From IMG/VR virus record IMGVR_UViG_3300006853_000045, positions 1 to 31,546 of that record: 31,546 bases of DNA. One strand, 5' to 3'. Made by a program: the position numbers and the translations under genes. Positions 3,993-24,134 of the stretch are shown here, piece by piece (the stretch's first letter is position 1; each line of letters starts with the position of its first letter). This DNA is from a virus. The notes under the pieces were generated by a model. The model saw only the letters and a program-made list of their open reading frames with translations. It was not told where the DNA came from and made no database searches.

Positions 3993-5437
3993 TGCCCCCG
4001 CTGCCGCTGGTGCTGCCGGCCTCATCGACCATCGGCCGTGACGGCCAGGTCGCCAATGCCCGGCTGATCAACGGCTATCCGGAAGTGTCCGGCGACGATG
4101 GCAAATCGCAGTTCGCGCTCTACGGCGCGCCCGGACTGACGCGCTGGGATAGCGCCTCATATGCCGGGGCCGAGCGCGGCATGATCGAGCTGTCGGCGAA
4201 CGAGCTGATCGCGGTGCTGGGCAATCAGATCGTGTCCTATGATGCCGTCGGCGCGGACACGCTGCTGACCAACATCGTCGGCTCCGGCCGGGTGATCATG
4301 GCGCGCAACCGGGCCTCCCCGCCGCAGATCGGCATCGTCACCTCTGCCGGGCAGTACTACGTGCTGGAGGCCGGAGTTCTCACCCTCAATGCCGATACCG
4401 ATCTGCCGGCCCCCAACAGCATCGACTATCTGAAAGGCAAGTTCCTCTACGGCATCCCGGACGGGCGCATCTTCGCCTCCGCCACCGATGACGGCACCTC
4501 GATCAGCGCGCTTGCCTTCGATGTCGCGGATAGCAATGCAGACGGTCTCGTCCGCGTGTTCGTTAATGCCGGCTTCCTCTATGCATATGGCCCGAAATCG
4601 CTGGAGATCTGGCAGGCCGATCCCTCGCTCGCCGGGCAGCCTTTCCCGTTCTCACCCGTGCAGCAGGACATCGAATATGGGCTGAGCGGCGCGCACACCG
4701 TCGCCAAATTCGAGAAGGCGCTGATCTGGGTGGATCAGAACAACATCGTCCGTTACGGCCGCGACGGCTCGGCGGAGCGGGCCTCGACCCATGCCGTGGA
4801 GCGCTCGATCGAGGCGCTGACCGCGACGCAGAAAGCCGAGATGGTCGGCTCGGTCCACGCTTGGCAGGGCCATGAGACCTATACGCTGAAGGGCGCGAAC
4901 TTCACCTGGTGCCTGGACCTGCCGCTCGCCAAGAAAAGCGGCTTCGAGAAGGCATGGTACGAGCGCGAATCCTACGGCCTCGACCATTGGCGGGTGAATT
5001 CCTCCATCTTGTTCGCCGGGAAATACATCCTGGGCGATGAGGACGACGGCAAGCTCTATAGCCTCGACCCGGCTGCGCAGACCGAGAACGGCGCCGATCA
5101 TGTGCTGGAGATCCATTGCCCGCATTCGCACCGCTTCCCGGAACGGATGATCGTGGATGGCATCGAGATCGATCTGGTCTCCGGCGTCGGGCTGAACACC
5201 ACGGACGACTGGAACGCCGATCCTGAGATCATGGTGGATTTCTCCGAGGATGGCGGCAAGACGTTCCAGTGCGAGCGCCGGGCCAAGATCGGGCGCCAGG
5301 GCGAATACCGGCAGACGGTGCGGCTCAATCGCTGGGGGCGCTGCACGAAGAAGGGGCGCATCTGGCGCATTCGGGCGTCAGCGGCCGTGCTGAAGGCGAT
5401 CAACAGCGCTTCCGTGCATGCGAGGCCGACGCGGTAA
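3992..5437 (+). CDS. P22 gp10-like packaged-DNA stabilisation protein (tail hub)
   Basis: A 481-aa protein, close to P22 gp10 (472 aa). The open frame extends further upstream, but the ATG at 3992 overlaps the preceding stop (TGATG) and gives the family N-terminus with NARLINGYPE, so that start is chosen. Repeated WD/kelch-like segments follow (LYGAPGLTRWD, YLKGKFLYGI, FLYAYGPKSLEIW, FEKALIWVDQNNIVRYG). The C-terminal part ends VDFSEDGGKTFQ and GRIWRIRASA, typical of the family. gp10 closes the portal channel together with gp4 and carries the tail needle or tailspikes. Order gp4-gp10 is as in P22-like phages. Confidence 0.85.
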   Translation: MPPLPLVLPASSTIGRDGQVANARLINGYPEVSGDDGKSQFALYGAPGLTRWDSASYAGAERGMIELSANELIAVLGNQIVSYDAVGADTLLTNIVGSGRVIMARNRASPPQIGIVTSAGQYYVLEAGVLTLNADTDLPAPNSIDYLKGKFLYGIPDGRIFASATDDGTSISALAFDVADSNADGLVRVFVNAGFLYAYGPKSLEIWQADPSLAGQPFPFSPVQQDIEYGLSGAHTVAKFEKALIWVDQNNIVRYGRDGSAERASTHAVERSIEALTATQKAEMVGSVHAWQGHETYTLKGANFTWCLDLPLAKKSGFEKAWYERESYGLDHWRVNSSILFAGKYILGDEDDGKLYSLDPAAQTENGADHVLEIHCPHSHRFPERMIVDGIEIDLVSGVGLNTTDDWNADPEIMVDFSEDGGKTFQCERRAKIGRQGEYRQTVRLNRWGRCTKKGRIWRIRASAAVLKAINSASVHARPTR

Positions 5438-5694
5438 TGGCGCGCCTTCCTGACCGCGAATTGCCCGTCGTCGACAAGGCGACGGCGAAGATGGTGCTCG
5501 AATGGTTCGCCGCGCTCAGGCAGATCGTGAACGAGTTGCCGGCGGTTCGGGTCTTTGCGGGCGAGGGCGCGCCGACGCTCAGCGCGGCGAAGGGCTCGCT
5601 CTATAGCCGCCTCGATGGTTCGACGACCAACGACCGCCTCTACATCAACACCGATGGTGGCACCACGTGGACCGCCGTCATCACGGCAGCATGA
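5437..5694 (+). CDS. 85-aa virion protein with tail-type C-terminal motif
   Basis: The ATG at 5437 overlaps the TAA of the gp10-like gene (TAATG). The first half (ELPVVDKATAKMVLEWFAAL) is helical. The C-terminus, SLYSRLDGSTTNDRLYINTD followed by GGTTWTAVITAA, is a motif I know from short proteins and fibre ends of alphaproteobacterial phages. Function is unknown; between the tail hub and the tailspike it may serve as an adaptor or small fibre. There is no signal peptide or membrane segment. The following gene begins 11 nt later. Confidence 0.65.
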   Translation: MARLPDRELPVVDKATAKMVLEWFAALRQIVNELPAVRVFAGEGAPTLSAAKGSLYSRLDGSTTNDRLYINTDGGTTWTAVITAA

Positions 5695-5705: not shown

Positions 5706-7970
5706 ATGGCAACCAGAACGCTTACCGATACCGCGACGGTTTCGTGGGATGAGGCCACGGCTGGCCAAGTCAAGGCAAATGTCGTCGATGGCTCTATCGC
5801 CACCGACAAGTTGGCTGATGACGCGACCACCAATGATAAACTGGCCGAAATGGTGCAGGCGACCATCAAAGGTCGCGCGGCGGCGGCTGGGACTGGCAAT
5901 CCGACTGACCTGACCGCTGCCCAGGTCGCCGCCATTCTCGGCTTCGGCGTGGGGTCAGGTAACGGGTTCATCGACCTCACGGAGATCGCCGCGCCCTCGA
6001 GCCCGGCATCAAATGTCGCGCGCGCCTATGCTGCCGATGATGGCGCAGGCGTCACCACGCTCGCGATGAAGGATGCGGCCGGCAACGTCGTACCGCTGTC
6101 ACATTTCCTGCAGGCGGGGACTGGAGCCACGACGCGCACACAGCACGGCAAGTTGCGCGACATCCTCAGCGTGAAGGATTTCGGCGCTGTCGGCGACAAC
6201 AACGGCACGCCCGGCAATGGCACGGACGACAGGGCCGCATTCAATGCCGCTTTTACTTATGCCGCCACCGTCGGTGCTCGGGTGCATATACCGGCGGGCA
6301 AGTATCGGATTTCCAACAGCATTTTTCTCACCGAGAACGCCGATGCATCATACTTCGACCCGAGAGCCTCAATCGTAGGCGATGGCGCCCGCTCCACCTA
6401 TCTCGTGTTCGACAATGGCAGTTTCGACGGCCTCACTGTTACTGGCACGAGCGCCAACAACTTCACTGCTGTCTCCGGGGCATCGCTCGAAGGCTTCACA
6501 CTCTACAAGACGGACGGCGCAGGCCGTGGCCTTGTTCTCATCGATCATGCGCATATCCGCACTGAGGATGTTTCCGCCGTCGCGTGGGAATATGGCGGCT
6601 ATTGCGGGGACGTTCAGGAAAGCCTGTTTGAGAACACAAACTTCTACTTCAACCTTTACGGCTTTCGCTCCGCACATGAAAACCTCACGCGACCGAACGT
6701 GCTCACCTTCATCGGCTGCACGATCGGCAACAGCCAGAACTGGGGTCTCGATGTCGAAAACGCCGCATCCCTGAATTACTACGGCGGCAGCATCGAATCG
6801 AATGGCGAGCTGGGAGCGGATTCAACTAAGTTTGGCGTGCGCGTCTTTTGGGATGAGTCGACTGACCCCGAAGGCAACCAGGCCGCGCTTTTCAGCGGCG
6901 TCTATTTCGAGCGCAACGCTGGCAAGGGCGACATCTACATCACGAATTCGTCCGCCTCGCCGCAGACCTATGCCGTTGTGGGTTGCAACTTCAACCGCGG
7001 CGAGGTGGGGTCGGGGACCGGGCTGTTCGGCACGAACTGCGTTCAGATCGAAACCTCGGGCGGCACCAAGAACACCCTATCGTTGATCGGCAACGGCTTT
7101 GGCGGTTTGCCGCGTTCTGGCGGGACGCCGTATGTCCCGAACGCCGCGCGACCCTATATCGGCATCGTCAATCCAACCCAGCCGCTTGCAATCGTGGATG
7201 TCGGAAACCGCTATACCGACAGCGTCGAAACTCCGGTGTGGAGCACGGGGGGCGGCATCAGCGTCGTGCGAACCGAGAGTGTTGCCGAAGCTCAGCACCT
7301 CATGTCGAACAATGCCGACGCCAACCCCGGACCATATAGCGTCCTGTTCAGGGATAGTGCGTCTCCCGCCGCTACGGATTTCGGCGGCGTGGTCGCCTTC
7401 GATTTTAGGAACAGCGCCGCCGCAAAGTTTCGCGGCGCCCAGATCGCCGCACGGATTATCGATCCGACATCCACCAGCGAAGACATCGAGACGGTTTTCT
7501 TCAACTATGTGGCTGGCACGCCTACCCAATCTATGGGCGTTGCGAACGGTTTAGCTGTCGGCAACGCGACCTATGACGGCACGGGGACCATTAAGGCCGA
7601 GAGTTCCATTAAGTCCGCAAGTGCAACGGCGGGCGTTGGATACGCAACAGGCGCCGGCGGCACGGTCACCCAGGCGACGAACAAAACGACCGGCGTCACG
7701 CTGAATAAGGTCTGCGGCCAGATCACGATGGCTGCGGGCACGATCAACGCCGGAGCTGAGGCAACCTTCGCCGTGACGAACAGCGCGGTAGGGACCACAG
7801 ATTGCGTCGTTGTCAATCATGACTCCGTGGGCACGTCGGGCGCCTACGGAGTATTCGCGCATAACATCGGCGCGGGATCGTTCAGCATCACCGTCACCAA
7901 CCTGTCGGCAGGGAATCTCGACGAACAGATCGTGCTCAACTTCGCGGTGATCAAGGCTGTGACGTCGTAA
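5706..7970 (+). CDS. Tailspike with pectate-lyase-type beta-helix
   Basis: A 754-aa protein. Residues 1-60 look like a virion anchor (DEATAGQVKANVVDGSIATD). Residues 155-180 carry SVKDFGAVGD...GTDDRAAFNAAF, the classical entry into the pectate-lyase superfamily beta-helix of phage tailspikes, followed by many short beta turns. The last 112 residues, from GYATGAGGTVTQATNK to VLNFAVIKAV, form a C-terminal domain I recognise from many otherwise unrelated tail fibres, probably for trimerisation. It would bind and perhaps cleave host surface polysaccharide. Its middle part appears less GC-biased than the capsid genes, as expected for frequently exchanged receptor-binding modules. Its end overlaps a minus-strand gene by 20 nt. 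Confidence 0.87.
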   Translation: MATRTLTDTATVSWDEATAGQVKANVVDGSIATDKLADDATTNDKLAEMVQATIKGRAAAAGTGNPTDLTAAQVAAILGFGVGSGNGFIDLTEIAAPSSPASNVARAYAADDGAGVTTLAMKDAAGNVVPLSHFLQAGTGATTRTQHGKLRDILSVKDFGAVGDNNGTPGNGTDDRAAFNAAFTYAATVGARVHIPAGKYRISNSIFLTENADASYFDPRASIVGDGARSTYLVFDNGSFDGLTVTGTSANNFTAVSGASLEGFTLYKTDGAGRGLVLIDHAHIRTEDVSAVAWEYGGYCGDVQESLFENTNFYFNLYGFRSAHENLTRPNVLTFIGCTIGNSQNWGLDVENAASLNYYGGSIESNGELGADSTKFGVRVFWDESTDPEGNQAALFSGVYFERNAGKGDIYITNSSASPQTYAVVGCNFNRGEVGSGTGLFGTNCVQIETSGGTKNTLSLIGNGFGGLPRSGGTPYVPNAARPYIGIVNPTQPLAIVDVGNRYTDSVETPVWSTGGGISVVRTESVAEAQHLMSNNADANPGPYSVLFRDSASPAATDFGGVVAFDFRNSAAAKFRGAQIAARIIDPTSTSEDIETVFFNYVAGTPTQSMGVANGLAVGNATYDGTGTIKAESSIKSASATAGVGYATGAGGTVTQATNKTTGVTLNKVCGQITMAAGTINAGAEATFAVTNSAVGTTDCVVVNHDSVGTSGAYGVFAHNIGAGSFSITVTNLSAGNLDEQIVLNFAVIKAVTS

Positions 7971-8148
7971 TCTTGTGACCGTAAAGCTTCGGGTTCGCCG
8001 CTCTAGGATGAGTGTGGATAGCATCCTCAATTTTCATCCGTTGCCGCTTCGCCTCCCAAGCGGCAACCGTAACGGCGAAAGCATAGAGTGCGGCGCCACA
8101 GAACAGTCCGACAAAGAAACCTCCGAAAGCCACATAGAAAACCAGCAT
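7951..8148 (-). CDS. Small single-pass membrane protein (antisense insert)
   Basis: A 65-aa protein read against the virion genes. The ATG at 8148 is preferred because GAGGG lies eight bases upstream, whereas earlier in-frame starts lack an RBS. Residues 1-31 (MLVFYVAFGGFFVGLFCGAA and onward) form one strongly hydrophobic segment; the remainder is basic and polar (EAKRQRMKIED, ANPKLYGHK), probably cytoplasmic. The 3' end overlaps the tailspike by 20 nt. Function is unknown. A moron or exclusion factor is possible. It could be a chance frame, but the hydrophobic profile plus RBS argue against that. Confidence 0.5.
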   Translation of the reverse strand: MLVFYVAFGGFFVGLFCGAALYAFAVTVAAWEAKRQRMKIEDAIHTHPRAANPKLYGHKITTSQP

Positions 8149-8293
8149 TTCGTTTGCCCTCAATATCGAGATGCGAAGTATCTCCATGAATAAAGTGAAT
8201 AGCTGGAGCTGAGTGCGGCGTCCATGACCAAAATTACAGATTTCGCCGCAATCCAGCAACAATCATGACGCATTCGGCAACGCCGCCGTCCTT

Positions 8294-8725
8294 ATGATCC
8301 GTCCCGCCACGCGCGCCGATATCCCGGACATCGTGGACCTCGGCGTGAGGCATTTGCGGGACAGCCATTACGCCGAGTTCGTCGAGCCTGACCGCGCCCA
8401 TATGGCGGCCTTCGCGCGCATGCTGATCGAGGCGCCCTGCGCCCTGCTGCTGGTCGCGGAGAAGGATGGCCGCCTCATCGGAACCATCGGCATGATGGCG
8501 ACGCCGCATCCGTATTCCGGCCAGTCGGTCCTGTCGGAGATGTTCTGGTATGTCGCCCCGGAAGCGCGGGGGAGCGGCGTCCGTCTCTTGAAAGCCGTTG
8601 AGGCCTGGGGCCGCGAGATCGGCGCCCGTCATATCATCATGATTGCCCCGGACAGCCGGGTTTCCTCGTTCTTCCAGCGCCTGGGCTACGCCCGCCTGGA
8701 GGAGCAGTTCATCAAGGCTCTGTAG
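8294..8725 (+). CDS. GNAT-family N-acetyltransferase
   Basis: A 143-aa protein, full length for a single GNAT domain. Residues 1-20 (MIRPATRADIPDIVDLGVRH) are the usual N-terminal strand-helix. Strands beta2-beta4 include LLLVAEKDGRLIGTIGMM. The acetyl-CoA binding motif A is WYVAPEARGSGVRLLKAVE (about residues 85-103) with the R-G-S-G pyrophosphate loop. The C-terminal SSFFQRLGYARLEEQFIKAL fits motif B. The acceptor substrate is unknown. It is set between tailspike and ejection genes, where such enzymes recur in podoviruses; it may modify a virion or host protein. No clear RBS precedes the ATG. Confidence 0.85.
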   Translation: MIRPATRADIPDIVDLGVRHLRDSHYAEFVEPDRAHMAAFARMLIEAPCALLLVAEKDGRLIGTIGMMATPHPYSGQSVLSEMFWYVAPEARGSGVRLLKAVEAWGREIGARHIIMIAPDSRVSSFFQRLGYARLEEQFIKAL

Positions 8726-8738
8726 GGAATCTCCATCC

Positions 8739-9422
8739 ATGGCTATCGGGACGACGGCGGCCATCATCGGCGCGTCGGTGATCGGCGCCGGGGCGCAGAT
8801 GTATGGCGCCAGCAAAGCCGCCAAGGGCGCGAAGGCGGCGGCCAATGTGCAGGCCAAGCAGTATGCCGAAACCAAGGCGATGCTGTCGCCCTATACCAGC
8901 GCGGGCGAATCGGCCCTTGGCAAATACAACACCGCCGTCGGTCTCAATGGCCGCGAACAGCAGCAGCAGTTCTATGACGAGTTCGAGCACGATCCCGGCT
9001 GGGAAGCGGCGAACAAGGCCGGGGCGGATACCGTCGATGACCGCTACCGGCTGTCCGGGTCATCGGGCGGGAACGTGCGCGCCGCGCTCTACGATTACGG
9101 CCAGCGCAATATGCTCTCAGCCTACAACACGCGGCTGTCTCAGCTTGGCGGTCTTGTCGATACCGGCCGCTCGGCGGCGTCATCCCTTGCCGGCTATGGC
9201 CAGCAATCGGCGCAGGCTCAGGGCAATCTGCTCTCCAATGCCGGCATGCTGCAGGGCCAGGGCATCACCGGGGCGGGCAATGCGATCGCCGGGGGTCTCG
9301 GCAACCTCGCCAACTACAACATGTACCAACAGGGCATGAATGCCGGATACACGCCCGGCACACTGGCGAATGGTGGCTGGTCCACGACCACAGTCAACAA
9401 CGCGAACAGGTATTTCGGCTGA
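8739..9422 (+). CDS. gp7-like DNA transfer (ejection) protein
   Basis: A 227-aa protein, the size of P22 gp7 (229 aa). The start at 8739 follows the GNAT stop by 13 nt, with GGGAATC upstream; it gives the family N-terminus MAIGTTAAIIGASVIGAGAQ, a Gly/Ala-rich hydrophobic helix followed by a Lys/Ala-rich helix (ASKAAKGAKAAANVQAKQYA). The rest is Gln/Gly/Asn-rich (YGQQSAQAQGNLLSNAGMLQ), and SGSSGGNVRAALYDYGQRN matches related phage proteins. Such proteins are packaged in the head and ejected to form a DNA conduit through the envelope. Family assignment is by pattern. Confidence 0.75.
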   Translation: MAIGTTAAIIGASVIGAGAQMYGASKAAKGAKAAANVQAKQYAETKAMLSPYTSAGESALGKYNTAVGLNGREQQQQFYDEFEHDPGWEAANKAGADTVDDRYRLSGSSGGNVRAALYDYGQRNMLSAYNTRLSQLGGLVDTGRSAASSLAGYGQQSAQAQGNLLSNAGMLQGQGITGAGNAIAGGLGNLANYNMYQQGMNAGYTPGTLANGGWSTTTVNNANRYFG

Positions 9423-9432
9423 GGAGCACCCC

Positions 9433-10506
9433 ATGGCAGGACTTCTCGAACCCTACATCCCCGATAGCTCGAAATGGTTCCAGTCCGCGAGCCAGGGCTA
9501 TGCGTTGGGCGATGCGATGCGCAACCGCGATGTGTCGGTGAATGCCGGCGCACTCGCGTCGCAGGGCAATCTGAAGGGCGCTCGCAATGCGCTCTATGCC
9601 GGGGGCAATTTCGACGACGCCGGCAAGGTGGATGACCGGATGATCGCGGCCACGCAGCGGGCGAAGACCGAGGATTTGGCCAAAGCCCAGCGTTTCAATG
9701 AAACCATGGGCAATCTCGCGCTGTCGGCCGACACGCCGGAGAAGTGGGAGAAGGCCATCACCGCCGCGCAGGGACTCGGCCTCAACGTCGGCAAATACCG
9801 GGATTTCTCCGCGCGCGACTTCGTCCTGGCGCAGGGCAAAAAGACTGAAGATCTGCTCAAGAACGAGCTGGAGCGGCGCAAGCTCGACATCCTGGAAGAG
9901 AAGACGGCGGCGAGCGTCGCGGCGCGCAATCAGCCCAAGCCTCGCAATCTGGGTTATGGCGATATCGAGAAGCTGGCCAAGAAGGGCTCCCAGCTTGAAA
10001 ACGTCGATCGCTATGCCACCACCTTCCAGGATCAGAATGCCGGCTATGGACGCCTCGGCGAAACCGCGATGTGGACGGCGCGCAACCTGCCATTCCTCAC
10101 CGGGCCGAAGACCGAGAACGCCGCCACCTGGTGGCAGGATTACGACCGCTACAAGAACCAGGTCCGCAACGAGCTGTTCGGCTCCGCGCTGACATCCGCC
10201 GAACAGGAAGCCTTTGAGAAGTCGGACATCAATCCGAACATGGACCCCCGACAGATCCGGCTCAATCTGGCGCGCCAGCAGGAAGCTGTGAAATCGGCCC
10301 TACGCAAGACCACATCGGGCCTCAAGGCATCGGGTTATCCGGAAGAAGCGGTGGATGCCGCGACTGGCGTCACGGCGGATCAGCTTCAGTCTGTCCCGAC
10401 GCCGGGCGGAACGAACCGCATCGATCTGAACAAGGGCACACAGCAGCCTGGATCAGCCGTCAAACAGATGTCTGACGATGAGCTGAAGAAAGCGCTGGGT
10501 CTCTAA
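9433..10506 (+). CDS. Probable ejection (internal virion) protein
   Basis: A 357-aa protein. The ATG at 9433 has GAGGAG eight bases upstream and is chosen over earlier in-frame codons inside the previous gene. It is mostly helical and charged, with AQRFNETMGNLALSADTPEK, a long Lys/Glu/Leu section (KTEDLLKNELERRKLDILEE) and a C-terminus ending MSDDELKKALGL. Its location between a gp7-like protein and a very large Gly/Ala-rich protein matches the P22 order of ejection proteins (gp7, gp20, gp16). I find no enzymatic motif. Its stop overlaps the next start (TAATG). Confidence 0.65.
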   Translation: MAGLLEPYIPDSSKWFQSASQGYALGDAMRNRDVSVNAGALASQGNLKGARNALYAGGNFDDAGKVDDRMIAATQRAKTEDLAKAQRFNETMGNLALSADTPEKWEKAITAAQGLGLNVGKYRDFSARDFVLAQGKKTEDLLKNELERRKLDILEEKTAASVAARNQPKPRNLGYGDIEKLAKKGSQLENVDRYATTFQDQNAGYGRLGETAMWTARNLPFLTGPKTENAATWWQDYDRYKNQVRNELFGSALTSAEQEAFEKSDINPNMDPRQIRLNLARQQEAVKSALRKTTSGLKASGYPEEAVDAATGVTADQLQSVPTPGGTNRIDLNKGTQQPGSAVKQMSDDELKKALGL

Positions 10507-12758
10507 TGTCGACACCTGAGGAGCTGCTGCTGGAAGCTGAGAGTCGGGGTCTTCTCCCGCCTGAGAAGCAAGAAGCGCTGGACGAACTGCGCCAGCGCGG
10601 CGGCATCATGTCCAAGGAGGAATATGAGGTCCGCAGCGGCATCAATCCGCGTCGCGGCGGATCATTCCTCGGCTCCGAACGCCTGATGCGGCTGTCGGAC
10701 CAGGTCATGGACCCGTTCGGCGTGTTCGACGAGATCACCGGTGCAGGCGCTTTCGCTGGCGAGCTGGTCAAGACCGGCAGCCTGGAGAAGGCCGGCAAGG
10801 CATATACCGCGATGGCGAATCGCATGCGCGCAGAGCGCAAGGTCGCGCGCGAGGAGAATACCATCCTGCCCGACATCGTCGGTGGCTTCGCGGCGGCGCC
10901 GGGGCGTGCATTGCAGGCGGCCGCACCGATCCTTACGCGAGTCGGGCAGGGCGTTCGCGAGGGCGCCGCCTATGGCGCGGCGGCAGGTTTTGCCCAGGGG
11001 GAAGGCGGTGTCGTCAATCGCGCGATCGGCGCGGGCGAAGGCGGTGTGGCTGGCGCGGTTATCGGCCCGCTCGCCTCCGAGGTCGCCATTCCCGCCGCGA
11101 TCCGCACGGGTGTCGGCATCCGCAATGCTGTCCGCTATGGCAATCAGGCCGTTCGCAATGCCCGCAATCCGGAGCAGGCAGCTATCGATCTGGCCGCTGA
11201 CCGCATGGTCGGGGCGAGCGTTGATCCGAACCAAATGCGAGCGCGGGTGCTCGCCGATGAGCGTGGGCGCCCCTTGCTGAGCGCGAACCTGCAAGCGCGT
11301 GGTATCACCGAAGAGGGGCTCGCCGATATGGTGAGCCGGAGCATGCGCGGCGAAGCTGCTGACCAGATCGGTCAGGACTACGGGATCACAGGGCCAACGG
11401 TCCGCGCCTATGTGCAGCGCTATCATGACACCAACCCGACGCCGATGAACCTGATGGACATCGCCAAGGAAATGGCGGGAGAGGGTGGCTCTGCACCCGT
11501 GACGAGGCTCGGGCGCGCCGCATATAGCCTTGCTGGCGATGAGAGCGGCGAGGCCGCGCAGCGGCTGATGGGGCGGCAGGACACGCAGGCCGGGCGCGTC
11601 TCCAACATCGTGCAGCGCTCGGTGGCCGGCGGCGACTTCGAGGCGACGCGCGCGGCAGGGCTGCAGAACCTTCGCGACGAGGCCGATACCGCCTATCGCC
11701 AGTTCTATGCCGAGCCCGATCTGGGCATTGATCAACTTGACGACCTGATGGCCGATCCGCTGTTTCGGCGGGCCAATGTCCAGGCGCAGCGTCAGGCACG
11801 GGTTGAGGCGATCCGGCGCAATCAGGAGGCGCGCCGCTCCGGTCAGCCCCCGGAACCAGTGCCTGAAGTTGATCCCAATAATCAGGTCTTCTCACCTGAG
11901 ATGCTGGACCTCATTCAACGCCAGCTCCGCATCGCTTCGGAGGGCGCTGTCAGCAATCCGAACAATGCGCGCCATGCCCGCAATCTGCGCGAGGTGTTCC
12001 TCGACCGCATCGAGGACCATTACCCGACCTTTCGCGGCATCCGGCGCGACTATGCGACCGCGATGGGCGAATTCGGCGAGGAGGGCGCGCTTGAAGCAGG
12101 CGCAGCGCTGACCACCAAACTCGGCGCGCCGACTCGGGAAGCCCTGCGCGGCTTCGACGATATGACCGTGGCGCAGCAGGAACTGTTCCGCCTCGGCTTT
12201 GCCCGCAAGCTGATGGATGATGCCGCGAACCCGCAGATCGGCGGCGCGGTGGCTAACAAGTTCAATACGCCCGCCGTGCGCGAGATCGTCGAGCGGCTCT
12301 ATCCGCGCAGCAATGCCGCCGCGCATCGGCAAGGCCAGCAATTGCTGCGTGACCTGCGCCGTGAGGCGATCACCACCAGGACCAAGAACGACGTCACGCA
12401 AGGCGCTCGCACGGCCGAACTTGGCTCGGATATGGGCCGGATGATGGAAGGTGCCCAGGCGGCTGCCGATGTGGCGACGGGCCGCTGGACACGGCTGCTG
12501 GAGAACCTTTCCACCCGCCTGTCCACGCAGATCGGCCGGCGCGGCGCGCGCGAGGTGCTCGACCTGCTGACGCAGACCGATCCGGCCCGCCTGCTGCCGC
12601 TGCTCAACCGTCTCGCGCGATCAGCCACCACGACGCAGCAGCGGCAGGCTTATGTGACGGCGCTGCGGGAGATCCGCAGCATCGGCACGCGGCGGCTGTC
12701 GGGTATCGTCGGGCAGAACGTGGGCGGAGAATTGGCTCTCACCGACCGGCGCGATTAG
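10506..12758 (+). CDS. Large internal virion / ejection protein
   Basis: A 750-aa protein. Residues about 120-200 are a Gly/Ala-rich, weakly hydrophobic region (GFAAAPGRALQAAAPILTRV, EGAAYGAAAGFAQGEG, GGVAGAVIGPLASEV) of a kind suited to membrane insertion, like P22 gp16. The rest is helical and rich in Arg, Ala and Gln, with repeated coiled-coil-prone stretches (residues 400-560). I see no lysozyme or transglycosylase catalytic motif. It follows the 357-aa protein with a one-base TAATG overlap and would be the third member of an ejection set. It ends 20 nt inside the 3' end of a minus-strand gene. Confidence 0.7.
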   Translation: MSTPEELLLEAESRGLLPPEKQEALDELRQRGGIMSKEEYEVRSGINPRRGGSFLGSERLMRLSDQVMDPFGVFDEITGAGAFAGELVKTGSLEKAGKAYTAMANRMRAERKVAREENTILPDIVGGFAAAPGRALQAAAPILTRVGQGVREGAAYGAAAGFAQGEGGVVNRAIGAGEGGVAGAVIGPLASEVAIPAAIRTGVGIRNAVRYGNQAVRNARNPEQAAIDLAADRMVGASVDPNQMRARVLADERGRPLLSANLQARGITEEGLADMVSRSMRGEAADQIGQDYGITGPTVRAYVQRYHDTNPTPMNLMDIAKEMAGEGGSAPVTRLGRAAYSLAGDESGEAAQRLMGRQDTQAGRVSNIVQRSVAGGDFEATRAAGLQNLRDEADTAYRQFYAEPDLGIDQLDDLMADPLFRRANVQAQRQARVEAIRRNQEARRSGQPPEPVPEVDPNNQVFSPEMLDLIQRQLRIASEGAVSNPNNARHARNLREVFLDRIEDHYPTFRGIRRDYATAMGEFGEEGALEAGAALTTKLGAPTREALRGFDDMTVAQQELFRLGFARKLMDDAANPQIGGAVANKFNTPAVREIVERLYPRSNAAAHRQGQQLLRDLRREAITTRTKNDVTQGARTAELGSDMGRMMEGAQAAADVATGRWTRLLENLSTRLSTQIGRRGAREVLDLLTQTDPARLLPLLNRLARSATTTQQRQAYVTALREIRSIGTRRLSGIVGQNVGGELALTDRRD

Positions 12759-12993
12759 GATCAATCGGGTAATCCGGCTTGGCACCCTCGTATATCGCGC
12801 AGGATTTCGGGTTATTGCTCAGGATGCAATCTGCTGCGGCCGCACTGATTTCGGGCGGCATCACCTTCGGCTTCTCGCTGAAATCAAGCGCCTGCTGCAC
12901 GAAATAGGATGCGGCGACGGCGAAGACGACAAACAGGAAGCGCCACAGCGCGCCGGGCGAGAAGAAAGGCTGGCCGTTCTTATCGGAGAGCAT
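12739..12993 (-). CDS. Small membrane-anchored protein (antisense insert)
   Basis: An 84-aa protein. The start at 12993 is chosen because it lies two bases after the stop of a 36-aa minus-strand gene, suggesting coupled translation. A polar N-terminus (MLSDKNGQPFFSPGA) is followed by one membrane helix (residues 16-38, LWRFLFVVFAVAASYFVQQA) and a C-terminal domain with two cysteines (C61 and C70, in AADCILSNNPKSCAIYEG) that could form a periplasmic disulphide. The topology is N-in/C-out by the look of it. The 3' end overlaps the large ejection-protein gene by 20 nt. Function is unknown; an envelope-acting exclusion or lysis accessory protein is possible. Confidence 0.5.
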   Translation of the reverse strand: MLSDKNGQPFFSPGALWRFLFVVFAVAASYFVQQALDFSEKPKVMPPEISAAAADCILSNNPKSCAIYEGAKPDYPIDPNRAGR

Positions 12994-12995
12994 GG

Positions 12996-13106
12996 TCAAC
13001 CCGACACCACCCAGCTCAGCGCGGCGAGACTGACCACCGTGATAACTGCATAGATGGCAAGTCCTGGCCATTCGCCATATCGGTCAACGAGCCAATCCAT
13101 CAGCAT
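12996..13106 (-). CDS. 36-aa membrane peptide (antisense insert)
   Basis: A minus-strand frame of 36 residues: a short amphipathic N-terminus (MLMDWLVDRYGEW) and a single membrane helix (GLAIYAVITVVSLAALSWVV) ending SG. It is followed at two bases by the 84-aa membrane protein, so the two form a mini-operon. The region upstream has only a weak purine stretch. Its profile resembles small phage membrane peptides near lysis or moron genes. Support comes from hydrophobicity and tight spacing; a chance frame is possible. Confidence 0.4.
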   Translation of the reverse strand: MLMDWLVDRYGEWPGLAIYAVITVVSLAALSWVVSG

Positions 13107-13168
13107 TATCTTTGCTCTGAGATAAGACATCTTGCCACCCATCAAGTGAAGCGCGGGAGTTTACCATC

Positions 13169-14509
13169 ATGGCGATCAGTGAACAAGAACGCCGCCGGAG
13201 AGCCGCTGCCGCCGAGCGCGCCAGACAGGAGCGGGAACGTCTCCGGCTGGAAGACAAACGCCGCTCCGATGAGTTGGAGGCGAAGCGCCTTGGCGTCCAG
13301 GAGCAGGAGCAGACTCGCCTGTCCGCCGAGCAGAAAAGCCGCGAGGAAGATGCTGATCGCCGCCGTGCGCGCGAGGATTTCGAGAACTCCGCTGGGGGCC
13401 AAACCTATCAGACTGCGAAGACGGTCGTGCCGCCAGCCCTCGGGCTCTATGTCGGGCATCGCCAGGCCGCAGGGATCGAAGCCCGTCAGGCTGGCATGGC
13501 CGCCCGTGGTCAGGCCAGCATGAGTGCAGGAAGGCGATATGCGCCCTATGCCGCACGCTCCATGCTGTTCCTGCCCGAGGGGTATTACCTGCGCAACTCG
13601 GTCGCGCCCACCATCGCGAGTGAAACTGGTCGGGACCTGACATCGGCCGCAGGGACGGGCATGATGCTGGCCGGAGGTGGGTTGCTCGGCGAGGGCGCCG
13701 TGAAAGCACTCACCCCGCAGGATCGCGGCGGGCCGCGTTTGCCCGCGCCACCGACACCCCCGGCTCCTGCCGCACCCGCTGCGGCTGCCGCCGCTCCCGC
13801 CACACCATCTCCTACCGGACCTCGCCCGCATGCCGACCGTCTGATCAGCGCCGCGCGCGCGGCAGGCGCCAAAGGCCCGCTGACCAAGGCAACGGCCGCC
13901 TCCTATCTGGAGACCAATCTCAACCCTGAGAACCGCGCCGCAGCGGCGGCCGAGCTTGGCATCAAGCCGGGCCGGAACTTCGCTTCGCGGATCTCCACCG
14001 CTGTTCGCAACATGGCCAATACGAGGGGCGTCTCGTCGGTTCTGCTACCGGTCGCGGCCGGCGCGATGGCCTATGACGCCGCATCGAGCGAAGCCGAAGC
14101 GGCGGGGGCGACGCCAGCAGAAGCAACTGGGCGCGGCGCATTGGCAGGCGGAGCGGCAGCAGGCACGACTTACGGCATTTCCAAGCTCGCCCCTTATGCG
14201 ATGGATGCCATCAGCAAGACGCCGCTTGGCCGTGTCGCCGCCCGCGCCCTTCCGCCTGCAGCAGCGGCGCTTACCGCCTATGACATCGGCAACATGGCGG
14301 CGGAGGAGAATGCTCGGCCGGACACCATGCTGCATGGCCCGGAGGAAGGCACCATGCCGGCGACACCCGGCAATCCGCAGTTCATGGCACGGCAACAGGC
14401 GCTCGCCCGGCAGACGCGGGGAGGCGATGATTTCGATGCCCAGCTCGCCGCCTTCATCCAGGCGGTGGAGGAGCATAATGCGGGGGCGGGAGAGCCTTAC
14501 GGGCCTTAG
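13169..14509 (+). CDS. Probable internal virion protein with coiled-coil N-terminus
   Basis: A 446-aa protein. Residues 1-72 are an Arg/Glu/Ala coiled coil (EQERRRRAAAAERARQERER). Residues about 195-220 are a Pro/Ala linker (LPAPPTPPAPAAPAAAAAAP). The remainder is Gly/Ala-rich with hydrophobic patches, such as SVLLPVAAGAMAYDAASSEA and GRGALAGGAAAGTTYGIS. The C-terminus is FDAQLAAFIQAVEEHNAGAG. Composition and position after the ejection proteins suggest another virion-internal protein. It is separated from them by the minus-strand membrane genes. The start is the first ATG after the intergenic gap, with GGGAG upstream. It ends with a 4-nt overlap with a convergent gene. Confidence 0.6.
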   Translation: MAISEQERRRRAAAAERARQERERLRLEDKRRSDELEAKRLGVQEQEQTRLSAEQKSREEDADRRRAREDFENSAGGQTYQTAKTVVPPALGLYVGHRQAAGIEARQAGMAARGQASMSAGRRYAPYAARSMLFLPEGYYLRNSVAPTIASETGRDLTSAAGTGMMLAGGGLLGEGAVKALTPQDRGGPRLPAPPTPPAPAAPAAAAAAPATPSPTGPRPHADRLISAARAAGAKGPLTKATAASYLETNLNPENRAAAAAELGIKPGRNFASRISTAVRNMANTRGVSSVLLPVAAGAMAYDAASSEAEAAGATPAEATGRGALAGGAAAGTTYGISKLAPYAMDAISKTPLGRVAARALPPAAAALTAYDIGNMAAEENARPDTMLHGPEEGTMPATPGNPQFMARQQALARQTRGGDDFDAQLAAFIQAVEEHNAGAGEPYGP

Positions 14510-14930: not shown

Positions 14931-14952
14931 GCGGGCGAAGCTAACAAAGTTC

Positions 14953-15007
14953 GGCAAGTTACACAATAAACGCTTGACGGCTTAAGCGAGGAATGTAACT
15001 TACACAA
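14953..15007. promoter_or_regulatory. Operator-like repeats and promoter in divergent intergenic region
   Basis: Two related 14-mers, GGCAAGTTACACAA (14953-14966) and TGTAACTTACACAA (14994-15007), match at 10 of 14 positions in the same orientation. The second contains a perfect palindrome, TGTAA-C-TTACA (14994-15004). Between them a rightward -35 TTGACG (14974-14979) has a weak -10 TAACTT (14996-15001) at a 16-bp spacing, covered by the second repeat. The ribbon-helix-helix gene starts at 14930 facing the other way. This is a typical operator pair of an autoregulated switch; binding is inference. Confidence 0.55.
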
Positions 15008-15078
15008 GTCGGCCTGACAGGGGACTGGAACTCCCCCGCCAAGCCTGACCATAGATCCACCTTCCGAGAGGTATCACC

Positions 15079-15303
15079 ATGGCTCCGGCCCTTATAAATC
15101 AGCCCGTTCTCGCCAGCAATCCGGCGGCGAACTGCAATGCCTACATCCTCGGCCTCGTCACCGAGCTTCGCCAGAAAATCGACGCGATCCCTGTCGTGCC
15201 CGGCCAGACCGTCACCCTGGACAGCAACGCGGTGCATGGACTGCGCGGCGTGTCGAGCGAACTGAGCGTCGCCCTTCGCAACCTGCTCAAATGGGCGGCG
15301 TGA
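15079..15303 (+). CDS. Hypothetical 74-aa protein
   Basis: First gene of a short rightward cluster beyond the divergent control region, preceded by GAGAGG at nine bases. The protein (MAPALINQPVLASNPAANCN, then YILGLVTELRQKIDAI and a C-terminal helix SSELSVALRNLLKW) has no membrane segment and no motif I recognise. Length and helical content suit a small regulatory or structural protein. It is followed 12 nt later by the next small gene. Its expression is probably controlled by the repeats upstream. Confidence 0.55.
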   Translation: MAPALINQPVLASNPAANCNAYILGLVTELRQKIDAIPVVPGQTVTLDSNAVHGLRGVSSELSVALRNLLKWAA

Positions 15304-15314
15304 GGGAGGCAGCG

Positions 15315-15542
15315 ATGAAGAAGCCTCAGGCCAAAATCTTCCTGGTGGAAGACCTGCAAAGGGCGAAGCTGGAACGTGATGAGAAACTCGACAACCTGCT
15401 GAGCGACATCGAAGGCATCAAGCAGGGATTGGACGCCACCGTCGAGGGCATCGGCTTCGAGATGGGACGGGAATTCCTGGTCCGCCAGCTTGAACAGCAT
15501 CTCGTGGTGCTGCGCGCGATCGTCCTGCCGGAGAACGGATGA
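15315..15542 (+). CDS. Hypothetical 75-aa helical protein
   Basis: Starts at MKKPQAKIFLVEDLQRAKLE. The ATG at 15315 is chosen because GGGAGG lies six bases upstream; an earlier in-frame ATG at 15291 falls within the previous gene. Almost fully helical and charged, with a likely coiled coil (LERDEKLDNLLSDIEGIKQG) and C-terminal FLVRQLEQHLVVLRAIVLPENG. No known motif. It ends with a 4-nt ATGA overlap with the next gene, so the three small genes form one unit. Confidence 0.55.
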   Translation: MKKPQAKIFLVEDLQRAKLERDEKLDNLLSDIEGIKQGLDATVEGIGFEMGREFLVRQLEQHLVVLRAIVLPENG

Positions 15543-15727
15543 TGCCAAATCGCGCACGCCGCTGGGCCGATGCCCCTCGCTCCGCCCGCTTCACGCATGT
15601 CCTGGCGCTGGAAAGCGCGCTCGCTTCGGCGATCAACATCATGGATTGCCGGGAGCAGACCGAAACCGGAAAGAAGCGTCTGAAGAGATGGCGGGATCTC
15701 CTGCGCGAGCAGCCGCCCCGCGAATAG
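15539..15727 (+). CDS. Hypothetical 62-aa basic protein
   Basis: Starts at ATGATG (15539 or 15542) overlapping the preceding stop, with GGAG upstream. The sequence is Arg-rich (NRARRWADAPRSARFTH), with a central helix (LALESALASAINIMDC) and a basic end (GKKRLKRWRDLLREQ). I recognise no family. It is the last gene before a strong intrinsic terminator 27 nt downstream. Confidence 0.5.
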   Translation: MMPNRARRWADAPRSARFTHVLALESALASAINIMDCREQTETGKKRLKRWRDLLREQPPRE

Positions 15728-15754
15728 CCGACCAGCATCAGACTTGAAAACTGA

Positions 15755-15777
15755 CCCCGCCCCGAGCGGGGTTTTTT
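15755..15777 (+). terminator. Intrinsic terminator
   Basis: CCCCGC (15755-15760), loop CCCGA, GCGGGG (15766-15771) and six T (15772-15777): a perfect 6-bp GC stem followed by a U-run. It ends the cluster of three small genes. The fibre gene begins only 12 nt later, leaving no space for a separate promoter downstream. Confidence 0.9.
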
Positions 15778-17132: not shown

Positions 17133-17828
17133 ATGACCGTCACTGACATTCAGCGGCGACTGGCGGAGCTTGGCATCTACGCCGGCGCCGTGGACGGCAT
17201 CAGCGGCAAGACGACCGTCGCCGCGATCCGAGCCTTCCAGCGCGTGCACGGGCTGACGGCGGACGGCATCGCCGGGCCGAAGACGCGGGCGGAGATGTTC
17301 CCCGCGCCGATCCCGGAGCGCGATGTCGATCCGCCGGACGATCCCGGCCGGACACAGCACGAACAGATGTGGCCACGCCAGAAGGACGTGGCCTCTTTTT
17401 TTGGCGAGGTCGGCAAGCACCAGACCATGCTGGAGTTGCCATACCCCATGCGCTTGGCCTGGGATCTGCGCCAGCCGGTGAAGCGGTTCTCCATCCACGA
17501 GAAGGTGCATGACAGCGCGCTGCGGTGCTTCCAGCGCATCGCGGATGCCTATGACGCCGAGGCGCGCCGGCTGACTGGCATCGACCTGTTCGGCGGCTGC
17601 CTCAACGTCCGGAAGATGCGGGGCGGCTCGTCGTGGAGCATGCATAGCTGGGGCATCGCCATCGACTTCGACCCCGCCCGCAATCAGCTTCGCTGGGACC
17701 GCACGAAGGCTCGGCTGGCTTTGCCCGACTGCCGGACGTTCTGGCAGATCTGGGAGAGCGAGGGTTGGGTCAGCTTGGGACGGGCGCGTGACTACGACCA
17801 CATGCATTGCCAGGCGGCGCGGCTGTAG
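17133..17828 (+). CDS. Endolysin: peptidoglycan-binding domain plus M15 peptidase
   Basis: A 231-aa protein. Residues 4-55 are a peptidoglycan-binding 1 domain (DIQRRLAELGIYAGAVDGIS, then AIRAFQRVHGLTADGIAG). Residues about 90-231 form a VanY/M15-type zinc peptidase with SMHSWGIAIDFDP, giving zinc ligands H171 and D178. The C-terminal DYDHMH gives D222 as likely catalytic acid and H225 as third ligand. It would cleave peptide cross-links such as L-Ala-D-Glu in the cell wall. No signal peptide, so release depends on a holin; candidates lie downstream (18306, 18838) with spanin genes. Confidence 0.87.
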   Translation: MTVTDIQRRLAELGIYAGAVDGISGKTTVAAIRAFQRVHGLTADGIAGPKTRAEMFPAPIPERDVDPPDDPGRTQHEQMWPRQKDVASFFGEVGKHQTMLELPYPMRLAWDLRQPVKRFSIHEKVHDSALRCFQRIADAYDAEARRLTGIDLFGGCLNVRKMRGGSSWSMHSWGIAIDFDPARNQLRWDRTKARLALPDCRTFWQIWESEGWVSLGRARDYDHMHCQAARL

Positions 17829-17862
17829 CGCGCTTATTTCCCGATTTTCGCAATTTCGCAAA

Positions 17863-17881
17863 TTCCGTCGCGACGACGGAA
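17863..17881. other. Short perfect inverted repeat after endolysin
   Basis: TTCCGTCG-CGA-CGACGGAA forms an 8-bp perfect stem with a three-base loop in the 93-nt gap between endolysin and gp49-family gene. There is no U-run on the plus side, so it is not a standard terminator. It could be an mRNA stabiliser or processing site. TTTCGCAA occurs twice just upstream. Confidence 0.45.
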
Positions 17882-17921
17882 AACCCGGCCGGATGGCCAC
17901 AATCCCGAAGAGGAAGAAAGC

Positions 17922-18242
17922 ATGACACCGAACGAACAGGCGATCGAGCACGAGATCCAGGCCAAGGGCCTGACCGCTGCACGCATCACCCCGCAGATGA
18001 TCGACGATACGATCGTCACCTGCGACTACCACGTCTTTCCCGGCACGACGCTGACTGTCTGCGCGCTGTCGCTGAAGAACGGCTTCCAGGTGGTGGGTGA
18101 ATCCGCCTGCGCTTCGCCTGAGAATTTCAACGAGGAGATCGGCCGCAAGATCGCCTTCGATAACGCCCGCAACAAGATCTGGGCGCTGGAAGGCTACCGG
18201 CTGCGCTCGGCATTGGCGCAGAACGTCGAGGCGCACGGCTGA
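17922..18242 (+). CDS. Gp49 family phage protein (N4 Gp49 / Sf6 gene 66 type)
   Basis: A 106-aa protein with the characteristic run FPGTTLTVCALSLKNGFQVV then GESACASPENFNEEIGRKIA, FDNARNKIWALEGY. This is the N4 Gp49/Sf6 gene 66 family, a widespread phage family of unknown function, here nearly full length. It starts with GAGGAAGAAAGC upstream. In this genome it lies among lysis genes, which may be a late-operon convenience rather than a lysis role. Confidence 0.85.
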   Translation: MTPNEQAIEHEIQAKGLTAARITPQMIDDTIVTCDYHVFPGTTLTVCALSLKNGFQVVGESACASPENFNEEIGRKIAFDNARNKIWALEGYRLRSALAQNVEAHG

Positions 18243-18305
18243 CCAATTCGGGGGCGGCTTCATTGGCCGCCCTCTCAATCAAAACCTGATGACAAGGAGT
18301 CTCCC

Positions 18306-18500
18306 ATGACCTGGGACACCGTACAGCAGCTCGTGCGCATCATCCTGCAGATTGGCGCCGGCGCCCTCGTGCAGCGTGGCTGGATCACCGAGGACATGGC
18401 CACGACCGTGATTGGCAGCGTGCTGTCGATCGGCGGCGTGATCTGGTGGGCCGCGTGGCAGTCTGGCCGCCCTGCTGATCCGCCCAAGACGGGCGTGTGA
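18306..18500 (+). CDS. Putative holin
   Basis: A 64-aa membrane protein. N-terminus MTWDTVQQLVRIILQIGAGALV, then WITEDMATTVIGSVLSIGGVIWWAAW: two hydrophobic stretches (about residues 8-25 and 34-52), and polar C-terminus. This matches the short phage holins beginning M-x-W-D-x-x-QQLVRI (Pam3 gp28-like). It would form membrane lesions that release the endolysin. Strong RBS AAGGAG at 18295-18300, spacing six bases. Its stop overlaps the spanin gene start (TGATG). Confidence 0.75.
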   Translation: MTWDTVQQLVRIILQIGAGALVQRGWITEDMATTVIGSVLSIGGVIWWAAWQSGRPADPPKTGV

Positions 18501-18718
18501 TGTCCATCCTCAAGGCGTTCTTCGCCGCGGTCTTCTCGGCGGTCCTGGGCTATGTCCGGGACCGCCAGAGGGATGCCGAGATCAAGGCGGCCGGCCGCGC
18601 CGAAGCTACGCTCAAATCCCTGGAGGAGACCAATGCGAGGGTGGACAAGGCTCTTGCCGCTCGCCGCGCCGCTGCTGCTACCAGCATGCGCGACGACGAC
18701 CCCTATCGCCGTGACTGA
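18500..18718 (+). CDS. Rz-like inner-membrane spanin
   Basis: A 72-aa protein: N-terminal membrane helix MSILKAFFAAVFSAVLGYV, then an Arg/Glu/Ala coiled coil (KAAGRAEATLKSLEETNARV, DKALAARRAAAA). This is the layout of a short i-spanin. The ATG at 18500 overlaps the holin-like stop. The gene for the outer-membrane partner starts within it in another frame (18633), the classical Rz/Rz1 nesting. Short for an Rz (lambda 153 aa), but the partner gene supports the call. Confidence 0.75.
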   Translation: MSILKAFFAAVFSAVLGYVRDRQRDAEIKAAGRAEATLKSLEETNARVDKALAARRAAAATSMRDDDPYRRD

Positions 18719-19909: not shown

Positions 19910-20004
19910 CACTTCCATCCCAGCCACGCCAGAAATGCACCTCCGGCCGTGATCGCCACCACCAGATAGACCGCGATCCAGAGCTTGTAGTCGTCGTCAT
20001 CCAT
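19909..20004 (-). CDS. 31-aa membrane peptide
   Basis: A tiny frame, MDDDDYKLWIAVYLVVAITA followed by GGAFLAWLGWK: acidic N-terminus, one membrane helix, C-terminal Lys. It overlaps the glycosyltransferase stop by 8 nt and its TGA overlaps the next ATG by one base. Such exact coupling on both sides supports it as a real gene. Function unknown; it might assist membrane association of the neighbouring glycosyltransferase. Confidence 0.5.
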   Translation of the reverse strand: MDDDDYKLWIAVYLVVAITAGGAFLAWLGWK

Positions 20005-23066: not shown

Positions 23067-24134
23067 CTAATCGATTGTGCCGATCGACGCAATCCATGAT
23101 CGCTCCATTTTTTCGACGGCCTCGTCATTCAGAGCGCGGGTGCGTGCCATATAGGTATCGATGATTTTCTCGATGTGCTTCATCGAGTGGCCGGTGATGG
23201 AAGCGATCTGCGCATTGGTGCATCCGTTCTCGGCAAGCACCGTGATGGCAGTACCGCGCAGGTCGTGGAAATGCAGGTGCGAAAGGCCGGCGCGGTTCTT
23301 CGTGGCGCTGAACTTCGTGCTGAAATGACTCTCCACCCAGGGCTGGCCTGTGACGGTCGTCAGGATCGGCTCGTCCTTATGCGGGATGCGTCCCAGGGCG
23401 AGTTTGGCGGCGTCGAGTGTCTCTTTCAGCATGCGCGTGCAGCGCGCTGGAAAACGGATTTTGCGACCGCCCTTGCGGTTCGTGACCATGATCCGCTCGC
23501 CGTCGTAATCGGCCCAGGCAATGCGGATGAGGTCGCCTTCGCGGCGGCCGAGGTGGAGCGCCATGATCAGCGCCAGGCGCATCGGCCGGTTCGCCTCCGC
23601 CATGCAGGCGTTCACGTCTTCTATGGTCCAGATCGCGTCGGAGCGATCTGCCTTGTAGGCCTTGGCGAGGCCGAGCAGATAGTTCGCGCTGAGGAGCGAT
23701 GAGTCCACGGCATAGCTGACCACCACGCTCATGGTCGCCCGCGTCAGGTCCGCCTGGCGTGGCCCGATCGTCTCGACGAGCTGGGAGTGCCACTTCTTGA
23801 TGTCGCGCCGGATCAGCTTGTCGTCGAGCGCGGCGAGCGGCAGATCGGCCCAGCCATCCTCGATGGTCTTGCGATGCTTCAGATAGTCTTTCTTGGTCCG
23901 ATCGCCGAGCGATTTGAAGGACTGCGAGCCGAAATACTCGGCGACGGCATCGGCGAACATCTCCGCCTGCGCCTTGGCGCGCTTGGCGGCTTTGTCGTAA
24001 GACACCTGGAATTCGAGCGTGCCCGGCTCGCCCTCGATGCGCTTGCCTGTGAGGCGGTGATAGTAATGGATGCGCCAGGTGCCGTCCGCGAGCTTCTTGC
24101 GGACCTTGTTAACGTGCTTGAGCCGCACTTGCAT
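23067..24134 (-). CDS. int: Tyrosine-recombinase integrase
   Basis: A 355-aa phage integrase. The N-terminal half includes an arm-binding region and SAM-like core-binding domain (EYFGSQSFKSLGDRTKKDYL). The catalytic domain has R198 in ALHLGRREGDLIRIAW, K221 in the beta-hairpin (TNRKGGRKIRF), H290 and R293 in HFHDLRGTAI, H316 in ITGHSM and nucleophile Y328 in IIDTYMA. All expected residues are present, so it should be active. It would recombine attP with a tRNA-Ser gene. It is the last gene of the leftward operon; the attP repeats begin four bases after the stop. The start overlaps the excisionase gene by 26 nt. Confidence 0.93.
   Translation of the reverse strand: MQVRLKHVNKVRKKLADGTWRIHYYHRLTGKRIEGEPGTLEFQVSYDKAAKRAKAQAEMFADAVAEYFGSQSFKSLGDRTKKDYLKHRKTIEDGWADLPLAALDDKLIRRDIKKWHSQLVETIGPRQADLTRATMSVVVSYAVDSSLLSANYLLGLAKAYKADRSDAIWTIEDVNACMAEANRPMRLALIMALHLGRREGDLIRIAWADYDGERIMVTNRKGGRKIRFPARCTRMLKETLDAAKLALGRIPHKDEPILTTVTGQPWVESHFSTKFSATKNRAGLSHLHFHDLRGTAITVLAENGCTNAQIASITGHSMKHIEKIIDTYMARTRALNDEAVEKMERSWIASIGTID

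What the first reader, a model, noticed from the sequence alone, without database searches (positions are those of the whole stretch)
7951..13106. Antisense membrane mini-genes inserted between virion genes
Three minus-strand frames (65, 84 and 36 aa), each with one membrane helix, sit in the only gaps of the plus-strand virion operon. Two overlap the 3' end of the adjacent virion gene by exactly 20 nt. Convergent, self-contained genes of this kind are the signature of morons expressed independently of the late operon. Envelope-localised products would suit superinfection exclusion.
Basis: partly seen in the sequence, partly recalled or inferred. Interest (0 to 1): 0.6.

Follow-up and report, generated by a model that had tools for sequence, protein, structure and literature searches.

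The report
Antisense membrane mini-genes in sieA slot
Small membrane-protein genes written backwards between virion genes of an uncultured temperate phage are real, and two of the three lie where phage P22 keeps its gene for shutting out rival phages, so they are probably fast-changing exclusion genes of the same kind.

Summary
In detail: three minus-strand ORFs (65, 84, 36 aa; one hydrophobic segment each) fill the only two gaps over 100 nt in the + strand virion operon.

The pair at 12739-13106 is well supported. Ten related contigs (window included; two found after the pattern was noticed) carry 1-3 antisense ORFs with membrane segments in the same slot, after the last long ejection-type gene: 10/10 slots, against 3.7/10 in shuffles (maximum 7). 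The 36-aa frame has a 54%-identical antisense homologue. The 84-aa protein shares a 33-aa segment with an antisense family "X" (56-71% identical within itself, dN/dS about 0.1-0.3). Most slot proteins are otherwise unrelated, so turnover is fast. In P22 this slot holds sieA, also antisense. In 12 named phages of this gene order, antisense genes there go with an integrase (5/5 with, 1/7 without). Lysis genes lie elsewhere on the + strand.

Best reading: a prophage-expressed inner-membrane mini-operon that blocks DNA entry by related phages, analogous to SieA but not homologous. Genes and slot are shown; expression and exclusion are inferred.

The 65-aa ORF is a window-only insertion: low GC, no relatives. 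The "exactly 20 nt" overlap is coincidental.

The parts
12996..13106 (-). m36: first gene of the antisense mini-operon, 36 aa, one hydrophobic segment
   Evidence: antisense homologue at L029:3181-3306 in the same slot, 54% identity over 33 aa, E 6e-8, mismatches by codon position 13/9/25
12739..12993 (-). m84: second gene, 84 aa, N-terminal hydrophobic segment plus a C-terminal extension with two cysteines; start 2 nt after the stop of m36; overlaps the gp16-like gene by 20 nt
   Evidence: shares a 33-aa segment with antisense family X (hhalign 91%, E 1e-6; blastp E 2e-6)
12759..13168 (.). slot 1: gap after the gp16-like gene, positional equivalent of the P22 sieA slot; GC 56%
7951..8148 (-). 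m65: separate antisense ORF, 65 aa, one hydrophobic segment, GAGGG upstream of ATG; window-specific insertion
   Evidence: no homologue; relatives lack a comparable gap or ORF here; GC 51%
5706..7970 (+). tailspike-like gene, 754 aa
   Evidence: PHROG tail / tail spike matches
8294..8725 (+). GNAT acetyltransferase, conserved at this position in relatives
   Evidence: Pfam PF00583, PHROG 1249
8739..9422 (+). DNA-ejection protein (position of P22 gene 7)
   Evidence: PHROG 598 DNA ejection, E 2.7e-18
9433..10506 (+). gp20-like gene by position
   Evidence: order as in P22; relatives 31-56% identical
10506..12758 (+). gp16-like gene by position (last long ejection-type gene), 750 aa
   Evidence: order as in P22; relatives about 65% identical; no detectable sequence homology to P22 gp16
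13169..14509 (+). 446-aa gene that closes slot 1
   Evidence: homologues in the same place in L018, L022, L039, L041, L042
14742..14930 (-). antisense ribbon-helix-helix regulator in slot 2 (mnt-like position)
   Evidence: Pfam RHH_1 E 0.006, below cut-off; homologues in L018, L040, L054, L055
14506..14745 (-). 79-aa antisense partner of the regulator
   Evidence: overlaps it by 4 nt; weak PHROG 924 match
14956..15007 (.). divergent region with two direct repeats AA[GC]TTACACAA (14956-14966, 14997-15007), possible operators
   Evidence: read from the sequence; inference
15079..15773 (+). small + strand genes facing the regulator, ended by a terminator-like hairpin (15753-15773)
17133..18718 (+). 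lysis cassette: endolysin 17133-17828, holin 18306-18500, possible spanin 18497-18718
   Evidence: Pfam PG_binding_1, Peptidase_M15_4, Phage_holin_10; spanin by appearance only
23067..24134 (-). tyrosine integrase
   Evidence: Pfam PF00589

Best explanation
12739-13106 is a two-gene antisense mini-operon (m36, then m84) in a conserved cargo slot directly after the last ejection-type gene of a temperate P22-order podovirus. Its products are small membrane-anchored proteins, most likely made while the phage is a prophage, when the opposing late operon is silent. The most likely action is to sit in the inner membrane and stop the ejection conduit or DNA of a superinfecting related phage, as SieA does in P22, but with unrelated and quickly replaced protein families. 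The 65-aa ORF at 7951-8148 is a separate, lineage-specific antisense insertion, probably also an envelope moron. Shown: genes, conservation, slot, orientation, association with integrases, separate lysis genes. Inferred: prophage expression, membrane location, exclusion, target.
For: Antisense ORFs with membrane segments in 10/10 slots of the family against 3.7/10 in shuffles. Purifying selection on X and m36 in the antisense frame; m84 related to X. Operon-type junctions. Same slot and strand as P22 sieA and as antisense gene pairs of Pam5 and CBW1004C-Prop1. Antisense cargo in the slot goes with an integrase in named phages, 5/5 against 1/7, Fisher P 0.015; the window has an integrase. Lysis cassette elsewhere. 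SieA blocks DNA injection, sits between genes 16 and 9, is prophage-expressed, and its types are only about 25% identical (PMC10883804).
Against: No expression or phenotype data. No promoter found. The proteins are far smaller than SieA (36-84 against about 162 aa) with one membrane segment against three, and lack its motif. In several family contigs no integrase was found, G005 and G010 among them, though all are fragments or of unknown completeness. MW202785 has an integrase but no slot cargo. The slot could carry morons of any function.
Confidence: 0.5

Rival explanations
1. Prophage-expressed envelope morons with another benefit to the host cell (stress, surface change, modulation of a host membrane complex), not exclusion of phages.
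For: Same anatomy; morons in prophages are diverse; no homology to any known exclusion or defence protein (PADLOC).
Against: The slot directly behind the ejection genes, its correspondence to sieA and the fast turnover of sequence fit exclusion better.
Confidence: 0.27
2. Lysis-timing proteins (antiholin, holin or spanin parts) encoded outside the main cassette.
For: Small single-helix proteins are common in lysis cassettes.
Against: A complete-looking cassette (endolysin, holin) lies on the + strand at 17133-18718, relatives likewise have endolysins on the virion strand; antisense orientation opposes late expression; no match to a lysis family.
Confidence: 0.07
3. Early or entry-stage genes that protect the infected cell during lytic growth (Imm-like), not prophage genes.
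For: Antisense to the late operon, so expression before late transcription is plausible.
Against: Association with integrases; slot lies far from recognised early genes.
Confidence: 0.1
4. Chance antisense ORFs with no product (all or the 65-aa one only).
For: m65 has no homologue at all; in AT-rich slots (L020, L022) shuffles often give such ORFs.
Against: Purifying selection on X and m36 in the antisense frame; 10/10 slots; operon-type junctions; P 0.001-0.006 for the window ORFs.
Confidence: 0.06

Closest known systems
P22 SieA (superinfection exclusion, slot between genes 16 and 9)
   Same: Position directly after the last ejection gene, antisense to the late operon, membrane protein, temperate phage, high sequence diversity between types.
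   Different: SieA is about 162-164 aa with three predicted membrane segments and a conserved motif; here two proteins of 36 and 84 aa with one segment each, no sequence similarity and no motif.
Slot genes of cyanophage Pam5 (Pam5_14, Pam5_15) and prophage CBW1004C-Prop1 (gp54, gp55)
   Same: Two antisense genes in the same slot, before the tail-fibre gene, in integrase-bearing phages; Pam5_14 (45 aa), Pam5_15 (128 aa) and gp54 (89 aa) contain membrane segments.
   Different: No detected sequence similarity to m36, m84 or X; CBW1004C gp55 is annotated as an exported protein, not an obvious membrane protein. Function unknown there too.
P22 immI region (mnt, arc, ant)
   Same: Window slot 2 has an antisense ribbon-helix-helix regulator facing small + strand genes, with possible operators between and a terminator; such regulators recur in four relatives.
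   Different: No antirepressor-like gene was recognised; in most relatives the module lies after the 446-aa gene, not directly after the gp16-like gene.

Membership tests
SieA family | Gene lies between the homologues of P22 genes 16 and 9, antisense to the late operon | tested here: met
   By position: for P22, for the family. The gp16-like protein is not detectably homologous to P22 gp16.
SieA family | About 162 aa with three or four membrane segments | tested here: not met
   36 and 84 aa, one hydrophobic segment each.
SieA family | Motif FxRYPxEAxxFNK | tested here: not met
   At most 3 of 9 fixed positions in m36, m84, m65 and X; 9 of 9 in P22 SieA.
[quoted passage not shown]
   Needs expression and infection assays.
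Moron (independently expressed prophage cargo) | Inserted between genes that adjoin in relatives | tested here: met
   m65: tailspike-like and GNAT genes abut or leave short spacers in relatives. Slot 1 itself is occupied in all ten relatives, so the pair is replaced cargo in a fixed slot.
Moron (independently expressed prophage cargo) | Base composition differs from the surrounding genes | tested here: met
   GC 51.4% and 56.3% against 63.3%.
Moron (independently expressed prophage cargo) | Own promoter and terminator | tested here: inconclusive
   No consensus sigma-70 promoter near the antisense genes; terminator-like hits no more than in shuffles; host unknown.
Moron (independently expressed prophage cargo) | Expressed in the lysogen | not testable with these tools
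   Needs stranded RNA-seq; integrase association is indirect.
Phage lysis proteins (holin, antiholin, spanin) | Match to a lysis family, or position in the lysis cassette | tested here: not met
   No family hit; cassette found at 17133-18718 on the other strand.

The most novel reading that the evidence does not exclude
The slot after the ejection genes is a general arena, outside enterobacteria too, for tiny antisense membrane-protein operons (often a pair) that act as quickly replaced blockers of DNA ejection: a class of superinfection-exclusion systems far smaller than SieA and largely missed because annotation skips short antisense ORFs.
Probability: 0.4. Interest if true: 0.65.

Novelty: new variant of a known kind. 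Interest (0 to 1): 0.5.

Why it matters
If right, a fixed and easily located genome position predicts exclusion genes in uncultured temperate podoviruses, even when the proteins share no sequence. It would give many 35-130 aa candidates that can be synthesised and tested directly, and would test whether a single helix is enough to block a phage ejection conduit. It also argues that small antisense ORFs between virion genes deserve annotation.

Tried and rejected
(1) '20-nt overlap is a signature': rejected; overlaps in relatives are 7, 7, 7 and 12 nt, or over 100 nt. (2) Lysis function: an endolysin and holin lie on the + strand. (3) Membership in Pfam, PHROGs, NCBIfam or PADLOC families: no meaningful hit for m36, m84, m65, X or Y; the phrog_9328 match to m36 (E 0.003) is weak and of unknown function. 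(4) Named-phage homologues of m84 or X by tblastn: none. (5) Host identification through prophages: two genome-contig scans gave no relative. (6) The six-sequence Hc3 alignment was too diverse for a pattern scan. (7) Homology of the gp16-like protein to P22 gp16: not detected, so gene names 16 and 20 are used by position only. (8) The glycosyltransferase at 19997-20971 as GtrB: shares only the general GT2 domain. (9) m65 homologues in relatives: none. (10) PAE2: its long annotated antisense ORFs look poorly supported as genes; it was counted by annotation, and P stays 0.015 without it. Structure prediction was not used: proteins this small with 2-4 homologues would not give informative models.
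Full report
WHAT IS THERE. The window is an IMG/VR record of 31,546 bases. A 47-kb record, IMGVR_UViG_3300050509_000199, was identical over the 3,195 bases compared and all window proteins tested match it at 100%. It is a P22-order podovirus: capsid genes, head closure Hc3 (PHROG 578), a tailspike-like gene, a GNAT acetyltransferase, a DNA-ejection protein (PHROG 598), two further long genes in the positions of P22 genes 20 and 16, a 446-aa gene, a fibre gene (15790-17010), then a + strand lysis cassette. An integrase at 23067-24134 suggests a temperate phage.

ARE THEY MORE THAN CHANCE? In dinucleotide-shuffled gaps an antisense ATG ORF of the same length and hydrophobicity appears in 0.3% (65 aa), 0.6% (84 aa) and 0.1% (36 aa) of trials. 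The gaps are GC-poor relative to the operon. These figures are conditional on the ORFs having been noticed, so conservation is the better test.

CONSERVATION. Scans of viral contigs with the ejection, head-closure and gp16-like proteins gave relatives with the same gene order. In G005 the slot after the gp16-like gene holds one antisense ORF that is a homologue of the 36-aa protein: 54% identity over 33 aa, E 6e-8, with mismatches at codon positions 13/9/25 and pN/pS 0.36. In G010, L040 and L042 the slot holds an antisense family, here called X (66-74 aa...KGEPFLSPxGxxNF... and a C-terminal membrane segment), 56-71% identical with dN 0.23-0.33 and dS 1.2-2.4. G010 and L042 add a second antisense single-helix protein, Y (53 and 51 aa). 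The window's 84-aa protein aligns to the X profile over the 33 residues around the membrane segment (hhalign probability 91%, E 1e-6; blastp E 2e-6) and carries its own C-terminal extension. Relatives whose gp16-like protein was not recognised by similarity (L018, L020, L022) have unrelated antisense membrane ORFs in the slot. Two more relatives fetched after the pattern was noticed, L054 and L055, also have them. In total 10/10 slots carry an antisense ORF with a membrane segment, against 2/10 in the sense direction and 3.7/10 expected from shuffles (maximum 7 in 1000); at a stricter hydrophobicity threshold the figures are 9/10, 0/10 and 2.0 (maximum 6). Two slots (L020, L022) are AT-rich enough that such an ORF is likely by chance in each taken alone.

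ANATOMY. Within the slot the antisense genes are packed like operons: TGA-CC-ATG in the window, TAA directly followed by GTG in L018 and by ATG in L020. The first antisense start codon lies only 11-62 nt from the start codon of the following sense gene in the five slots measured, so the antisense promoter must lie in that short stretch or inside the 5' part of the sense gene, and late transcription runs straight through the antisense genes. No consensus promoter was found, which says little for an unknown host. A second slot, between the 446-aa gene and the fibre gene, holds an antisense ribbon-helix-helix (RHH) regulator plus a partner in the window (14506-14930), facing small + strand genes that end at a terminator. 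RHH homologues occur in L018, L054 and L055 in this second slot, and in L040 inside the first slot, next to family X.

WHAT THE SLOT IS. In P22 the order is Hc3 (gene 10), 26, 14, 7, 20, 16, then antisense sieA, orf59a and mnt, then arc and ant, then tail gene 9. The window's antisense pair is thus in the sieA position and its RHH gene in an mnt-like position. In cyanophage Pam5 and in prophage CBW1004C-Prop1 two antisense genes occupy the same slot before the tail-fibre gene; three of these four encode membrane segments. Among 12 complete named phages of this gene order, those with antisense genes annotated in the slot (P22, Pam5, CBW1004C-Prop1, phiAX1, PAE2) all have an integrase. Of the seven without (DSL-LC05, MW202785, P26218, BA3, MW202557, MW202573, MW202520) only MW202785 does (Fisher P 0.015). 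The phages are not phylogenetically independent, so this is support and not proof.

HOW IT MOST LIKELY WORKS. [quoted passage not shown]). The window's pair shares slot, strand, membrane nature, temperate setting and fast sequence turnover. The best-supported reading is that m36 and m84 are made in the lysogen and interfere with ejection or DNA entry of superinfecting relatives. Gene reality, conservation and position are shown; expression, location and exclusion are inferred. They are not members of the SieA family: size, helix number and motif fail.

THE 65-AA ORF. It has a ribosome-binding-type sequence (GAGGG, 8 nt before ATG), one hydrophobic segment and low-GC surroundings, but no homologue. 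In relatives the tailspike-like and GNAT genes abut or leave short spacers without a comparable membrane ORF. It is a lineage-specific insertion, probably a moron, with lower confidence (my estimate: about 0.7 that it is a real gene).

NOVELTY. Exclusion genes in this slot are a known kind. What is new is that, in a group of uncultured podoviruses, the slot is regularly filled by very small antisense membrane proteins from several unrelated families, one of which (X) shows clear purifying selection. None matches a described family in Pfam, PHROGs, NCBIfam or PADLOC. Full-text searches found SieA described in this slot but no paper describing mini-protein pairs there; the library is partial, so this is not proof of absence.

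Noticed in passing
window 14506-15773; L040 8581-9534; L018 12637-13332; L054 7360-8319; L055 16179-16987: A recurrent module of an antisense ribbon-helix-helix regulator with an antisense partner, facing small + strand genes (several ending in a shared 'RRECxRLFxL' C-terminus), usually between the 446-aa gene and the fibre gene. It resembles the P22 mnt/arc layout.
   Followed up: partly
window 8294-8725; L018, L020, L022, L024, L030, L041, L054: A GNAT acetyltransferase is conserved directly before the ejection protein, in the place of P22 gene 14. Why a phage of this kind needs it is unknown; P22 gp14 itself matches DUF2824.
   Followed up: partly
L031 2216-2356 (+, antisense to the virion genes of G010): A further antisense single-helix ORF (46 aa) directly abutting the 3' end of the fibre gene, before the endolysin gene: a possible third cargo slot.
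   Followed up: no
window 5434-5694 (+): A small + gene (about 85 aa) resembling the N-terminus of tail genes in relatives stands alone before the 754-aa tailspike-like gene, suggesting a split attachment domain.
   Followed up: no
window 19997-20971 (-) and 20993-21526 (-): A family 2 glycosyltransferase next to a LuxR-type regulator, possibly surface-modifying cargo; it lacks the C-terminal membrane segments of P22 GtrB.
   Followed up: partly
Pam5 record ON014757.1, 23729-24154 (-): Pfam finds an integrase in Pam5, whereas the Pam5 paper (PMC9382816) reports none was identified.
   Followed up: no
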